A stretch of DNA of 64,000 nucleotides from Methanococcus maripaludis (GTDB lineage Archaea; AGJL01; Methanococci; Methanococcales; Methanococcaceae), in the NCBI RefSeq assembly GCF_013760955.1, contig NZ_JACDUL010000003.1, positions 1 through 64,000 of the forward strand, read 5' to 3'. This document shows, piece by piece, positions 6,946 to 27,164 of the stretch. Position 1 is the first letter of the stretch. Every line of letters starts with the position of its first letter. The notes beneath the pieces were generated by a model. It was given only the letters and a program-made list of their open reading frames with translations. It did not search any database and was not told the origin of the DNA. A program made the translations under genes and the position numbers.

Positions 6946-8235
6946 TCACTTTTTATTCAAAACATACACAAATTCTTTTCCAGCTTTTTTCTTTTCCAAA
7001 TATCCTAAATCCACCAGATGGTTTAAATCCGCCCTTCCGGTTGCATAAGCTACGTTATATGTTGTAACGATTTCTTTAATCGTAATTATGTTTTCAGGAG
7101 TCTTTAAAATCTCTTTTAAAATCTCTGCTTGGCGCAGATTAAGATCTTCTGATTTATTTATAAGATTTAGAACTTCTTTTTGTTCAACCTGTTTTTTACT
7201 TAAATATTCCAATATTTCATCAAGGGATCTGCAGATGCATTCCAGGTTGTATTTTATAAAATACGTTAAATCCCCTTTATCATCTTTATAAAAAGTATCT
7301 GATTCCGTTTTTAAATAAGCGTCCCGATACTGTCCTTTTGATCCATTAATTACTCTTGAAATTGCCATATATTCAAATAACCAGTAATCATTCTTTAAAA
7401 GGTACCAGTAAAATAGGGATCTTGCAGTTCTACCATTTCCATCGTTGAATGGGTGAATATATCCAATTAAAAAGTGGATTATAATTCCTTTTATTATTGG
7501 ATGGATGAATTTGTCTTTTGAATTTGAAAATTCACATAAATTATTCATTAATGATTCAACCAGCTCGTATTTTGGAGGTTCGTGAAGCAGTGTTCCATCA
7601 GTAGAATAAACTGCAATTTCATTATTTTTTCTAAATTTTCCAACAAATTCGGGATCTTCAAGCGTTCCATCAGTGATAATTTTATGAATTTTTAATATTT
7701 CAGAAATAGAAAATTCTTTATTTTTTATTTCAAGGATGTATTTCATCGTATTGTAATTATTAAGGATCATTTTTTGATCTTTATTTTTTGGTTTTTGGCC
7801 TTTTTTTAGCATTTCCTTCGCTACTTTTCTCGTAGTTACTGCCCCTTCAATCTGGCTTGAAGCAATTGCTTCTTCCATTAATGAGTCTATAATATATCGT
7901 TCTTTTTCACTTGGAATAGATTCGAGTGCAGTTGAAAGGTTTCCAGATGCCGATTTATCGAGGGTATGCAGCTTTTCAATGAATTCATCGATTAAAGAAT
8001 AATTAAATGTCCATTTTCCAAAATGTATTGATTTTAAATTATTCATTCTAAACATTTTCATTATTGTCCAGATTATAACTGGATCTATCGGAAGTGTTTT
8101 ATGTTTTAATTCATTAAAATGAAGATACTTTTCATTGTATTTTTGGACAATATCAATTATTTCCCGATTTGGTACATATTTAAGTGCAATTTCAATGTTT
8201 TCTTTTGAATATTTTGGAATTTTTGGAAGTTTCAT
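6946..8235 (-). CDS. Fic family protein (AMP-transferase-like) with C-terminal winged helix
   Basis: A 429-residue Fic protein. The catalytic loop is HPFNDGNGRTARSL (around residues 256-269), a complete HPFxxGNGRxxR motif, so nucleotide transfer (usually AMP) to a target hydroxyl is expected. An N-terminal helix carries SSQIEG (residues ~126-131), the [S/T]xxxE[G/N] inhibitory motif of self-inhibited Fic proteins. The last 70 residues (LNLRQAEILKEILKTPENIITIKEIV) look like a winged helix, so the protein may also bind DNA. The start lies against a pair of direct repeats that look like operators. Its divergent partner is a DUF4143 ATPase. Its target is unknown. Confidence 0.92.
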   Translation of the reverse strand: MKLPKIPKYSKENIEIALKYVPNREIIDIVQKYNEKYLHFNELKHKTLPIDPVIIWTIMKMFRMNNLKSIHFGKWTFNYSLIDEFIEKLHTLDKSASGNLSTALESIPSEKERYIIDSLMEEAIASSQIEGAVTTRKVAKEMLKKGQKPKNKDQKMILNNYNTMKYILEIKNKEFSISEILKIHKIITDGTLEDPEFVGKFRKNNEIAVYSTDGTLLHEPPKYELVESLMNNLCEFSNSKDKFIHPIIKGIIIHFLIGYIHPFNDGNGRTARSLFYWYLLKNDYWLFEYMAISRVINGSKGQYRDAYLKTESDTFYKDDKGDLTYFIKYNLECICRSLDEILEYLSKKQVEQKEVLNLINKSEDLNLRQAEILKEILKTPENIITIKEIVTTYNVAYATGRADLNHLVDLGYLEKKKAGKEFVYVLNKK

Positions 8236-23447: not shown

Positions 23448-24245
23448 ATGGAAAATTTAATTGAAAATCTTATTATTGAGTTTGTGAAAAATTATGCAAA
23501 AGAACAGAATACAAAAACAAAATGGTTGACCCCAATTGTTGGATTTGCAGATTCTAACGACCCAGAATTTTTAGAATTAAAAGAAATAATTTCGGAAAAA
23601 CACCTAACTCCTAAAGAAGTATTGAGTGAATCAAAAAGTGTAATATGCTACTTTTTACCTTTTTCAAAAGAAATTAACCTTGGAAATGTAAAACCTGGCC
23701 TCGCATCTGAGACTTGGGCAATTTCTTATGTAGAAACAAACAAAATGATAGAAAAACTAAACGACTATCTCTCTGAAAAACTGGGTGAAATGAATTATAT
23801 CTGCTCAAAAATTCCCCCGACACACAATTTCGATAAAGAAAAGCTGATAAGCAACTGGTCACACAGGCACGTTGCAAAAATTGCAGGGCTTGGTACTTTT
23901 GGACTAAACAACATGTTAATTACAGAAAAAGGATGTAACGGTCGATTCGGAAGTTTAATTACATCTGCAAAATTAAAACCTAGTGAAAAACCAAATTATG
24001 AATACTGTTTGTATAAGTATAATGGTTCTTGTAAACTTTGCATTGAAAAATGTGAAAAACAAGCTTTAAAAATAAATGAATTTAACCGAAAGGAATGTTA
24101 TAAAGTATGTTTAACAAATGAAAAAGTTTATGAAAAATATGGGGTTGCAGATGTTTGTGGAAAATGTTTATGTGCAGTTCCGTGTTCTTTTACAAATCCA
24201 TCAAAAAACTTAAACGATAAATTAAAAGATAAAAATAAAGAATAA
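23448..24245 (+). CDS. QueG-like iron-sulfur protein (4Fe-4S double cluster)
   Basis: A 265-residue protein resembling epoxyqueuosine reductase without its C-terminal HEAT region. The core contains HRHVAKIAGLGTFGLNNMLIT, cut here, with RFGSLITSAKL next, as in QueG around its cobalamin site. Two 4Fe-4S clusters are indicated by CKLCIEKCEKQALKI and CGKCLCAVPCS plus nearby Cys. Archaea usually make archaeosine rather than queuosine, so the substrate probably differs; a corrinoid-dependent reduction or dehalogenation is conceivable. It is a single gene divergent to pyrD. Confidence 0.8.
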   Translation: MENLIENLIIEFVKNYAKEQNTKTKWLTPIVGFADSNDPEFLELKEIISEKHLTPKEVLSESKSVICYFLPFSKEINLGNVKPGLASETWAISYVETNKMIEKLNDYLSEKLGEMNYICSKIPPTHNFDKEKLISNWSHRHVAKIAGLGTFGLNNMLITEKGCNGRFGSLITSAKLKPSEKPNYEYCLYKYNGSCKLCIEKCEKQALKINEFNRKECYKVCLTNEKVYEKYGVADVCGKCLCAVPCSFTNPSKNLNDKLKDKNKE

Positions 24246-24251
24246 AAAGAT

Positions 24252-25355
24252 CTAAAACATCGTTTTATTTTCTCTTAAACAGGATTCTGCTTCTGCCAAT
24301 ATTTTTAAAATATCTTTTTCAGAATTATATTTTTTAAGAATAACTTCGGAAAGATTTCCATTTTGGATCCTGTTTTGGATGTGAATTAAATAAGATTTTT
24401 CTTCATCTGTTGCAACAGCAAATGCTTTTTTATAAAGCGATTCCAATTCTGCTTTTAACTTCTTTGTTCCAGATTTTATTGCCATATCTGTTAATTCAAT
24501 AATTGTTTCGTCGTCTTCTGCTACTTTTAAATCATTAACTCTTAAAAGACAGTTTATAAATGCTGAAACAGCCATATCTGCATGAACCGATTCCTGTTCA
24601 TCCATTATTTTTATTTCAACACATTTTCTTTCACGTCGTATAATTAAAGCCCTTGAATTTACCCATTCTTCGCATAAAACTTCTGCATCTTTTTTTCTAA
24701 GTTCTACGTACATTTTTTCAAGGAGTTTTTCATAATCAGACGATTTGTTAAGTTTTTCAGGTATTAAATTTCCGCAGATTTCGGGAATTTCTTTCTGATT
24801 TTTTTTGTAATATAATAGACGGTTATCCATATACCCAGTTACCTGCCCTTCAATTATTGGAGAAGATGCAGTTATTGCTACAAGGTACGGGAGGAGTGTT
24901 CTAAGTTTGTTGTGCTTTCTAACGAGATCTTCTTCACTTGAATATTCAATATTTACCTGCAAAGCCTGAATATTCATCCAACCGTGCTGTCTTAAGTTAA
25001 ATACTCTGTCATATGTATCGAAAACTTCTCTTTCATCGTGGTTCCAAAATGAAGTTTCCGATAAATTTAAAGTGGGGTGCATTCCAAGACCCAATAATTT
25101 GTACTGATTATTGGTCTTTTCGTAAAAACTTTTTAAACCAGTCACAATCTGAGTTTCGAGATTTGAAATACTTTCTGAAGGGTGATTTGGTTTAAATTCA
25201 ATTACGTGTTTTTGTAATTCTTTTGAAATACCAACTGTCTCGAAAGAAAATTCATTTTGTATTTTTCCAGAAATTTCTTCGATTATTAAGTCTGAAATTG
25301 GCATTGCTTTTAGATCCGAATTGTTGATGGAATATTCGTGTTCAGTTCCTATCAT
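24252..25355 (-). CDS. GCS2-family glutamate-cysteine ligase-like enzyme
   Basis: A 367-residue member of the GCS2 (YbdK-type) carboxylate-amine ligase family. The N-terminus IGTEHEYSI holds the paired acidic metal ligands; LGLGMHPTLNLSETSFWNHDE, then HGWMNIQALQVNIEY and SPIIEGQVTGYMDNRLLYY are family landmarks. It would couple a gamma-carboxyl group to an amine using ATP. Methanogens are not known for glutathione, so the product is unclear. It overlaps the ATP-grasp gene by 14 bases, making a tight operon with the RimK-like pair. A peptide cofactor or protein modification is the likely product type. Confidence 0.85.
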   Translation of the reverse strand: MIGTEHEYSINNSDLKAMPISDLIIEEISGKIQNEFSFETVGISKELQKHVIEFKPNHPSESISNLETQIVTGLKSFYEKTNNQYKLLGLGMHPTLNLSETSFWNHDEREVFDTYDRVFNLRQHGWMNIQALQVNIEYSSEEDLVRKHNKLRTLLPYLVAITASSPIIEGQVTGYMDNRLLYYKKNQKEIPEICGNLIPEKLNKSSDYEKLLEKMYVELRKKDAEVLCEEWVNSRALIIRRERKCVEIKIMDEQESVHADMAVSAFINCLLRVNDLKVAEDDETIIELTDMAIKSGTKKLKAELESLYKKAFAVATDEEKSYLIHIQNRIQNGNLSEVILKKYNSEKDILKILAEAESCLRENKTMF

Positions 25356-26292
25356 TTGCTACACCATCTAGGTCAATTGCTTCTGAAAAATTTGCCCTTG
25401 CACTTGGAAATTTCCGTCTTGAATCATCCATAATATACGATACAATTTTAGAATACGCTTCAGGGTAAAATTCGTCCTCCGTTGTTTCAAGTGACGGATT
25501 ATCATTTACCTCAATTACATAAACTTTTCCTGAATTTTCTTTTAAATCAACACCATAAAGACCCGTTCCAACAGCATTTGCAGCTTTTAACGCTGTGTTT
25601 ATAACTTTTTTTGGAACTTCATCATACATCACGCTTTCAACCATGCAGTATACCCTGTGCCCATCCACGCAGTCCTGTATCTTGAAAGTTTCTTTTGGAA
25701 TTAAGTATTTGCAAGCATAAATTACTTCACCGTTTAAAATTCCAACTCTCCAGTCAAATCTACTTTCTATAAATTCCTGTGCAACTAAAATATCCGAAAG
25801 TCTCAAAAATCTGGAAGCTACTTTTGAAAATTCTTCCAAAGACGTTACTTTTTCAACTCGCATTGAAAAGGAGGTTGATGGCTCTTTTACGATTAAAGGA
25901 AGCCCAATTTCTTCAGTAATGCTTTTTAAGTTTTCAATGTTGTTTTCAGATTTCTTTAAAAATTTGGTTTTTGGAATCGGTACGTCATTTTTCATCATGT
26001 GCAAATACATGTTTATCTTATCAGCACAGATTTGAATTGACTTTGAATCGTCAATTACCCTTACACCATTTAATTCTGCAATTCTTGATGCTACGTAGCT
26101 TATATTCATTGGATCGGTTTTAGAACGAATAAAAAGACCGTCTAATGTTTTTATTTTATGTATCTCATTTGGGAACAGAAAATAAAACTCGTGGCCCATT
26201 GATTCTGCAATATCCCGGAATCTGATTAAAGATTGGAGTTGATTTGAACTACTAAGGGTTTGTCTATCAACAAATACTCCAAATTTTCCCAT
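25342..26292 (-). CDS. RimK-type ATP-grasp ligase
   Basis: A 316-residue ATP-grasp enzyme. The adenine-binding hinge lies near LVAQEFIESRFDWRVGIL, and the metal site near the end is YVIEVNDNPSLETTEDE. The N-terminal third follows the RimK/MptN layout (KMGKFGVFVDR-like start, then SKSIQICADKINMYLHMMKN). Such enzymes add amino acids (often Glu) to a carboxylate. It is directly preceded by a RLAN-like gene (stop and start adjacent) and overlaps a GCS2 ligase gene, so the three should act together on a shared substrate. The identity of that substrate is not visible. Confidence 0.9.
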   Translation of the reverse strand: MGKFGVFVDRQTLSSSNQLQSLIRFRDIAESMGHEFYFLFPNEIHKIKTLDGLFIRSKTDPMNISYVASRIAELNGVRVIDDSKSIQICADKINMYLHMMKNDVPIPKTKFLKKSENNIENLKSITEEIGLPLIVKEPSTSFSMRVEKVTSLEEFSKVASRFLRLSDILVAQEFIESRFDWRVGILNGEVIYACKYLIPKETFKIQDCVDGHRVYCMVESVMYDEVPKKVINTALKAANAVGTGLYGVDLKENSGKVYVIEVNDNPSLETTEDEFYPEAYSKIVSYIMDDSRRKFPSARANFSEAIDLDGVANDRN

Positions 26293-26898
26293 TTAATCCA
26301 CCAACAAAGTCTTTTCGATCATTATTTTTTCTTCTTTTGAAAGTTTTGATACGTTTACAGGTGATAAGGACGAAAGAAATATTTTATCGTCGATAAATAC
26401 AAATAAAGCATTAATTAGCGGAATTTTAAATGTTTGATAGATTTTATTCGCCAGCTGTTTTATATGTTCATTTTCTGTGCATGCCTGTCCAAATAATATT
26501 GAAAAATTCCCCATTTCAAAATTTTCAGGAACTTTTTGATAACATAGCGGATATTTTCCGCAGTTTGTTACGTGTTTTGATATTCGCTTAGATTCTTCCC
26601 GATTTTTAACGATATAATATGTTGAAGGATCTGAAAAATAATTTACTGAGTAAACAATCGCAGGATTTGGAACATCTCCCGAAGAAATTTCCCATTCCAT
26701 AATAGGTATTCCTGAAAGCTCTGCCCTTTTAAGTGTTACTGGAACAATATATGCATCCAATACATCATTACTACTTGGAAAAACCTTATTTTTTCCAGAT
26801 ATCTCTTTTAATATCAGTTCGTAGTAACTTTCAGTTTTGTAAAAATAATCTTTGCTTATTAAACAGTCTATTCCGTCTTTTATTGTAGTATGAGACAT
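26293..26898 (-). CDS. RimK-like N-terminal (RLAN-type) protein
   Basis: A 201-residue protein that resembles the RimK-like ATP-grasp N-terminal domain (RLAN), here as a separate polypeptide. It contains DVLDAYIVPVTLKRAELSGIPI and FSDPSTYYIVKNREESKRISKHVT, split across turns, and NFSILFGQACTENEHIKQLA with a conserved Cys. Its stop codon touches the ATP-grasp start. The start is uncertain: ATG 26898 is used, with a TTG at 26907; GGTGA lies about 30 bases upstream, further than normal. In other organisms RLAN is fused to ATP-grasp ligases, which supports a complex. Confidence 0.7.
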   Translation of the reverse strand: MSHTTIKDGIDCLISKDYFYKTESYYELILKEISGKNKVFPSSNDVLDAYIVPVTLKRAELSGIPIMEWEISSGDVPNPAIVYSVNYFSDPSTYYIVKNREESKRISKHVTNCGKYPLCYQKVPENFEMGNFSILFGQACTENEHIKQLANKIYQTFKIPLINALFVFIDDKIFLSSLSPVNVSKLSKEEKIMIEKTLLVD

Positions 26899-27164
26899 TT
26901 TATTCAAAAAAAACCCTTTTTTTGGAATAAACTCACCTTCATTGCTGTTTTAAAGGCCCGACACTCCCCCACAATATAATCGAAGTATCATGATTCCTAC
27001 AACATCACGATATATAAATTTATGTAATCAAAAAAATCGATTTAAAACAGTTTTTTTTAGAATTAACGGTTTAAACACGGTAAAATCATGTAAACATATA
27101 TTAACCCTTTTGAAAATAAAATATATTGAGGCCAAAAAAGCCTTACATAAATTGGGGGGATATT

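What the first reader, a model, noticed from the sequence alone, without database searches (positions are those of the whole stretch)
24252..26907. Three-gene amidoligase operon with no assigned product
A RLAN-like protein, a RimK-type ATP-grasp ligase and a GCS2 ligase are fused end to end (touching or overlapping genes). Two different amide-forming ligases in one operon imply a short peptide or peptide-modified product. Methanogens are not known to make glutathione. This is the best candidate here for an undescribed pathway.
Basis: partly seen in the sequence, partly recalled or inferred. Interest (0 to 1): 0.66.

Follow-up and report, generated by a model that had tools for sequence, protein, structure and literature searches.

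The report
Archaeal two-ligase operon, product unknown
A few marine methane-producing archaea carry a compact gene set for two different ATP-driven bond-making enzymes that very likely build a small, still unidentified glutamyl peptide-like compound; relatives of the same gene set occur widely in bacteria and archaea, so finding the product would explain many genomes at once.

Summary
Three minus-strand genes, RLAN (26293-26907), RimK-type ATP-grasp (25342-26292) and GCS2 (24252-25355), touch or overlap, and all pass Pfam cut-offs. Active-site residues of both ligases are conserved and the genes are under purifying selection. The trio occurs in 4 of 36 genomes of the window's phylum, always beside a QueG-like Fe-S gene (23448-24245), so it looks like a four-gene acquired islet.

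It is not isolated. The same subfamilies form a split RLAN/RimK/GCS2 unit in Methanothrix and Bathyarchaeia (usually with a CxxCxxCC protein), and a fused RLAN-RimK + GCS2 operon in many bacteria (often with N-formylglutamate amidohydrolase and a C39-like peptidase). In all three gene trees Methanococcus groups with Methanothrix.

New here: the predicted RLAN fold matches ATP-grasp ligases, so RLAN is probably a dead ATP-grasp partner of RimK. Cofactor glutamylation is unlikely, because the genome has separate CofF and MptN genes.

Best explanation: two ATP-dependent amide ligations making a small gamma-glutamyl pseudo-peptide. The product is unknown; protein or peptide modification remains possible. 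The arrangement was, from memory, described by Iyer et al. 2009, so this is a new variant of a known kind.

The parts
26293..26907 (-). RLAN protein, 204 aa; predicted catalytically dead ATP-grasp-like partner of the RimK protein
   Evidence: Pfam PF14401 33.5 bits, cut-off 25. AlphaFold model confident for residues 45-204; PDB matches are ATP-grasp ligases, e.g. RimK 4iwx TM 0.65. Weak profile match to RimK, P 2.7e-4 against 0.023 or worse for controls. Lacks the Lys and E-x-N of active ATP-grasp domains.
25342..26292 (-). RimK-type ATP-grasp amide ligase, 316 aa
   Evidence: PF08443 45.6 bits, cut-off 21; rimK_fam 82.7 below its subfamily cut-off 143.4, so a divergent branch. K92, K136, D180, R182, D249, E261, N263 invariant in 21 homologues.
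24252..25355 (-). GCS2-family carboxylate-amine (gamma-glutamyl) ligase, 367 aa; overlaps the RimK gene at 25342-25355
   Evidence: PF04107 142.6 bits, cut-off 21. Model pLDDT 90; PDB matches YbdK TM 0.70 and plant glutamate-cysteine ligase TM 0.71-0.76. E46, E53, N128, R179, R235, E247 invariant and E5, E7 at least 90%.
23448..24245 (+). QueG-like Fe-S protein, 265 aa; convergent neighbour with the same distribution as the trio; possible functional partner
   Evidence: Weak matches to epoxyqueuosine reductase and reductive dehalogenase; found in the same 4 of 36 genomes, always adjacent; not beside the trio outside this genus.

Best explanation
The trio is a two-step, ATP-dependent biosynthetic unit for a small gamma-glutamyl pseudo-peptide. 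One step (inferred): GCS2 phosphorylates the gamma-carboxylate of glutamate or a close analogue and joins it to an amine, as glutamate-cysteine ligase and YbdK do. Other step (inferred): RimK phosphorylates a carboxylate and adds an amino acid, most likely glutamate. The order of the steps is not known. RLAN is a catalytically dead ATP-grasp-like subunit that probably pairs with RimK and helps to hold the acceptor; in bacteria the two are one polypeptide. Shown: gene anatomy, conserved active sites, predicted folds, co-inheritance. Inferred: chemistry, substrates, product. The acceptor amine is open, with a weak hint towards polyamines from Bathyarchaeia.
For: Both ligase active sites are conserved across bacteria and archaea. 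The GCS2 model matches gamma-glutamyl ligases. All three gene trees place Methanococcus with Methanothrix and separate archaea from bacteria, so the parts travel together. RLAN and RimK lie next to GCS2 in 20 of 20 Methanosarcinia loci read (RLAN of L171 read), and a RimK relative is in 52 of 53 bacterial loci. No candidate protein target is encoded beside the trio in Methanococcus. Bacterial loci add N-formylglutamate amidohydrolase (40 of 53) and a C39-like peptidase (39 of 53), enzymes that would act on small amides or peptides. A GCS2-less bacterial RimK relative sits beside a GNAT protein, an alternative amine-capping enzyme.
Against: No product, substrate or phenotype is known. RimK relatives also modify proteins, and a C39-like peptidase fits peptide processing as well. 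RimK carries a frameshift in one of the four genomes (G016), so the unit is dispensable there or that sequence has an error. GCS2 occurs without any RLAN in five archaeal genomes tested, so the two need not always work together. The acceptor cannot be read from sequence.
Confidence: 0.5

Rival explanations
1. Protein or ribosomal-peptide modification: RLAN-RimK adds amino acids to a protein or peptide C terminus and GCS2 caps or branches it; in bacteria the C39-like peptidase and FGase reverse or trim the tag.
For: RimK adds glutamates to RpsF and RimB removes them (PMC12239564). Bacterial operons pair the ligases with a C39-like peptidase. The GCS2 fold is distantly shared with the Pup ligase PafA (4bjr, E 2.8e-3). 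Archaeal operons often hold a small CxxCxxCC protein that could be a target.
Against: No small precursor or target gene lies beside the trio in Methanococcus. The CxxCxxCC proteins show no conserved C-terminal tail by eye, and Methanococcus has none in the operon; its own two copies are not specially close to the operonic ones.
Confidence: 0.22
2. Amine or polyamine conjugation: GCS2 and RimK attach glutamate or other amino acids to agmatine, putrescine or a larger polyamine.
For: In one Bathyarchaeial clade a deoxyhypusine-synthase-family gene follows RLAN-RimK on the same strand, next to a second divergent copy. GCS2 genes of another clade lie near pyruvoyl-dependent arginine decarboxylase.
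Against: Neither gene was seen beside the trio in Methanococcus, in Methanothrix relatives or in bacteria. The arginine-decarboxylase-linked GCS2 genomes have no RLAN. Neighbours within one clade may be shared by descent.
Confidence: 0.12
3. Glutathione-like thiol synthesis: GCS2 makes gamma-glutamylcysteine and RimK acts in the place of glutathione synthetase.
For: The GCS2 model has its best TM-score with plant glutamate-cysteine ligase (0.76). GSH itself is made by a GCS followed by an ATP-grasp ligase (own knowledge). In Methanosarcinia a thioredoxin-domain DUF255 protein lies upstream in 17 of 20 loci.
Against: Far below every glutamate-cysteine ligase cut-off (best 39.6 of 249). Operons occur in Legionella and other gammaproteobacteria, groups that make GSH by other enzymes (own knowledge). 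Five unidentified methanogens lacked GSH and gamma-Glu-Cys (PMC7278568). The DUF255 protein is absent from three of the four Methanococcus genomes with the trio.
Confidence: 0.1
4. Glutamylation of a known methanogen cofactor (F420 or methanopterin).
For: RimK is a distant relative of MptN and CofF (72.4 and 46.3 bits).
Against: CofF (504 bits, cut-off 300) and MptN (376 bits, cut-off 350) are separate genes in this genome. The trio's GCS2 is missing from 32 of 36 genomes of the phylum, which should need both cofactors too. The same system is in bacteria such as Legionella and Bacteroidota.
Confidence: 0.04

Closest known systems
RLAN-RimK / GCS2 amidoligase neighbourhoods (Iyer et al. 2009, Mol Biosyst 5:1636; content recalled, paper not held)
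   Same: RLAN domain, RimK-like ATP-grasp and GCS2 encoded together; no known product.
   Different: Here RLAN and RimK are separate genes, there is no peptidase, FGase or GNAT, and a QueG-like Fe-S gene is the linked neighbour. RLAN as an ATP-grasp-like fold is, as far as I recall, not in the Pfam description.
Bacterial C39 peptidase / RLAN-RimK fusion / GCS2 / FGase operon (e.g. loci L046-L100; Legionella adelaidensis NZ_LR134436 without the C39 gene in the stretch read)
   Same: Same GCS2 and RimK subfamilies (about 29-35% identity), overlapping genes, same order of RLAN, RimK and GCS2.
   Different: Fused RLAN-RimK; extra hydrolases; separate branch of all three trees.
Methanothrix-type operon RLAN / RimK / CxxCxxCC / GCS2 (L021-L023, L048, L161-L180)
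   Same: Closest relatives of the window's genes outside the genus (GCS2 46-49%, RimK 55-58%); split RLAN and RimK; same order.
   Different: CxxCxxCC gene between RimK and GCS2, DUF255 gene upstream; both missing from this locus.
YbdK-type carboxylate-amine ligases and glutamate-cysteine ligases
   Same: Fold, and acids of the ATP/metal site.
   Different: Well below family cut-offs (54 of 176.4 for the YbdK family).
RimK, MptN, CofF, LysX/ArgX
   Same: ATP-grasp fold and catalytic residues.
   Different: Below all equivalog cut-offs; the motif around the second substrate site differs from classical RimK (classical motif from memory).

Membership tests
RLAN-RimK/GCS2 amidoligase system | RLAN domain present | tested here: met
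   33.5 bits, cut-off 25; all 30 aligned RLAN sequences match PF14401 at E 0.1 or better
RLAN-RimK/GCS2 amidoligase system | RimK-like ATP-grasp directly after RLAN with intact catalytic residues | tested here: met
   Separate gene, zero gap; residues invariant
RLAN-RimK/GCS2 amidoligase system | GCS2 ligase in the same operon with intact acids | tested here: met
   14-base overlap; E46, E53, E247 invariant, E5, E7 at least 90%
RLAN-RimK/GCS2 amidoligase system | Accessory FGase, C39 peptidase or GNAT (bacterial form) | tested here: not met
   None among the flanking ORFs scanned by Pfam; FGase and C39 present in 40 and 39 of 53 bacterial loci. Accessory only, so not held against membership of the core system
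Glutamate-cysteine ligase (GshA) | Reaches a curated equivalog cut-off | tested here: not met
   Best 39.6 of 249.05 bits (TIGR02048)
Glutamate-cysteine ligase (GshA) | Makes gamma-glutamylcysteine | not testable with these tools
   Needs an enzyme assay
YbdK carboxylate-amine ligase | Reaches subfamily cut-off | tested here: not met
   54 of 176.4 bits, although the fold matches (TM 0.70)
MptN / CofF cofactor ligases | Reaches equivalog cut-off | tested here: not met
   72.4 of 350 and 46.3 of 300; true MptN and CofF are other genes
RimK ribosomal S6 ligase | Reaches equivalog cut-off | tested here: not met
   27.8 of 331 bits
ATP-grasp fold (RLAN) | Overall fold | tested here: met
   The 50 listed PDB matches are ATP-grasp proteins; TM up to 0.65, best E 1.5e-7. 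Rests on a predicted model
ATP-grasp fold (RLAN) | Sequence homology to RimK | tested here: inconclusive
   hhalign P 2.7e-4 and 1.6e-3 (archaeal RLAN) against controls 0.023-0.62; bacterial RLAN alone P 0.017-0.032
ATP-grasp fold (RLAN) | Catalytic Lys and E-x-N | tested here: not met
   No such conserved residues in alignment A3

The most novel reading that the evidence does not exclude
An undescribed small gamma-glutamyl pseudo-peptide is made by one ligase system shared by archaea and bacteria, and its RLAN subunit is a dead duplicate of the ATP-grasp ligase it serves.
Probability: 0.4. Interest if true: 0.75.

Novelty: new variant of a known kind. Interest (0 to 1): 0.5.

Why it matters
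The same ligase pair occurs in Methanothrix, Bathyarchaeia, Legionella, Bacteroidota, Planctomycetota and others, with no product known to me. Methanococcus maripaludis is genetically tractable (own knowledge), and this genus holds the smallest version of the system (no hydrolases, no CxxCxxCC gene), so a deletion with metabolomics there would be a direct route to the product. If RLAN is a pseudo-ATP-grasp, a Pfam domain recalled as an uncharacterised fold gains a fold, an origin and a testable role.

Tried and rejected
CxxCxxCC (YkgJ) partner elsewhere in the genome: the four genomes with the trio have a second copy and the three sister genomes lack it, but it is not specially close to the operonic type; rejected. 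DUF255 thioredoxin protein as partner in Methanococcus: present in only one of four; rejected. Composition evidence for recent transfer: trio G+C 32.1% against 32.5% for the window; none. Viral contigs: no relative found. QueG-like gene as a general partner: not beside the trio outside the genus, and distant homologues occur in genomes with and without the trio. Polyamine link: kept as a weak rival only. Sigma-70 promoter patterns are at chance and unsuited to archaea; terminator-like patterns (5 found, 2.0 expected) do not mark the operon ends. Literature: no experimental study of this trio in the held library. A first alignment for the GCS2 fold held one plasmid-derived sequence and was not accepted; it was redone without that row.

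Full report
Check of the observation. The three ORFs lie exactly where stated, all on the minus strand: RLAN 26293-26907, RimK 25342-26292 and GCS2 24252-25355. RLAN and RimK abut; RimK and GCS2 overlap by 14 bases. All pass Pfam cut-offs. The genes are touching, not fused. In three other genomes of the same genus the order is the same, with dN/dS of 0.09-0.22, so these are selected genes. One of those genomes (G016) has a frameshift in the first part of rimK.

Distribution in the phylum. RLAN and GCS2 are each found in 4 of 36 genomes, all in the window's genus. The convergent QueG-like Fe-S gene 23448-24245 has exactly the same distribution and place. In the three genus members without the trio, the flanking DHOD and DUF378 genes are neighbours. 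The simplest reading is one gain of a four-gene islet in the ancestor of the four; gain in the genus ancestor followed by one loss is also possible. Base composition gives no sign of recent import.

Relatives. A scan of 84,980 species genomes found 285 relatives of this GCS2 subfamily; the best 80 were read. Of 53 bacterial loci, 52 hold a RimK relative, 40 an N-formylglutamate amidohydrolase and 39 a C39-like peptidase. In bacteria RLAN and RimK are one protein. In archaea they are separate genes, as here. A CxxCxxCC protein is in 21 of 27 archaeal loci. In a class-wide sample around Methanothrix, 39 of 150 genomes have the GCS2, and in all 20 loci read RLAN and RimK are adjacent to it. Six Bathyarchaeial genomes with GCS2 but no RLAN in the fetched stretch each have one RLAN elsewhere. 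Five archaeal genomes have GCS2 without RLAN: the Archaeoglobaceae bin and the four of the clade near arginine decarboxylase; these are bins and may be incomplete.

Co-inheritance. Quick maximum-likelihood trees put Methanococcus with Methanothrix for GCS2 (SH-aLRT 100), RimK (99) and RLAN (98), and separate archaea from bacteria in each. The three parts therefore travel as a unit.

Active sites. Across 25-26 homologues the GCS2 residues E46, E53, N128, R179, R235, E247 are invariant, and E5 and E7 at least 90% conserved. The alignment to YbdK places E5/E7, E53 and E247 on acids of YbdK as well. The model (pLDDT 90) matches YbdK and plant glutamate-cysteine ligase. RimK keeps K92, K136, D180, R182, D249, E261 and N263; their roles in ATP and metal binding are from knowledge of the ATP-grasp family.

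Cofactor hypothesis. The genome has a CofF (504 bits, cut-off 300) and an MptN (376 bits, cut-off 350) apart from this locus, plus another RimK-family gene. Together with absence of the trio's GCS2 from 32 of 36 genomes of the phylum, this makes cofactor glutamylation unlikely.

RLAN. The AlphaFold model is confident for residues 45-204 and poor before that. The 50 listed PDB matches are ATP-grasp proteins (RimK 4iwx TM 0.65, ArgX 3vpb 0.64-0.65, D-Ala-D-Ala ligases; E about 1e-7 to 3e-6). Profile comparison of archaeal RLAN with RimK gives P 2.7e-4 (archaeal RimK) and 1.6e-3 (bacterial RimK), while seven unrelated or reversed controls give 0.023-0.62; a first run with all RLAN sequences gave 4.3e-4 against 0.55 for GCS2. 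A PDB profile search by sequence has D-Ala-D-Ala ligase as its weak top hit (E 0.025, not significant alone). Bacterial RLAN alone is not significant (P 0.017-0.032). I conclude that RLAN is probably a degenerate ATP-grasp domain without the catalytic Lys and E-x-N, perhaps arisen by duplication next to RimK. This rests mainly on the predicted fold.

Mechanism. The most economical reading is two ATP-dependent amide ligations on a small substrate: gamma-glutamylation by GCS2 and addition of an amino acid by RimK, with RLAN as non-catalytic partner. Protein or peptide modification, polyamine conjugation and thiol synthesis are rivals at lower odds. No experiment on this trio was found in the held literature; RimK biology from PMC12239564 and archaeal thiols from PMC7278568 were used as background.

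Novelty. From memory, RLAN-RimK/GCS2 neighbourhoods were reported by Iyer et al. 2009, so the kind is known. What is new here, as far as I can tell, is the split archaeal variant with its own partners, the four-gene islet in Methanococcus, and the fold assignment of RLAN.

Noticed in passing
window 23448-24245 (+): QueG-like / reductive-dehalogenase-like Fe-S protein with no Pfam match, present in the same four genomes as the trio and always beside it.
   Followed up: partly
L013 about 8042-8223: rimK of genome G016 carries a frameshift in its first part, either a natural loss or a sequence error.
   Followed up: no
L035, L044, L142-L144, L146, L147: Bathyarchaeial RLAN-RimK followed on the same strand by a deoxyhypusine-synthase-family gene, with a second copy of that family divergent beside it.
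   Followed up: partly
L026, L034, L038: GCS2 of an RLAN-less Bathyarchaeial clade lies two genes downstream of pyruvoyl-dependent arginine decarboxylase, with a small protein without Pfam match between them; L030 has the small protein but its stretch begins too late to show the decarboxylase.
   Followed up: partly
L161-L180: DUF255 thioredoxin-domain protein upstream of RLAN-RimK in 17 of 20 Methanosarcinia loci while other neighbours change.
   Followed up: partly
L018 5127-6353 and 7001-7726: Azospirillum GNAT protein with a C39-like second half (by eye) near a RimK-like match, with no GCS2 of this subfamily found on the plasmid: a possible variant with GNAT in place of GCS2.
   Followed up: partly
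G000:C1:392450-393049 (L002 1435-2244): A further RimK-family ligase in the same genome that is neither MptN nor CofF by cut-off.
   Followed up: no
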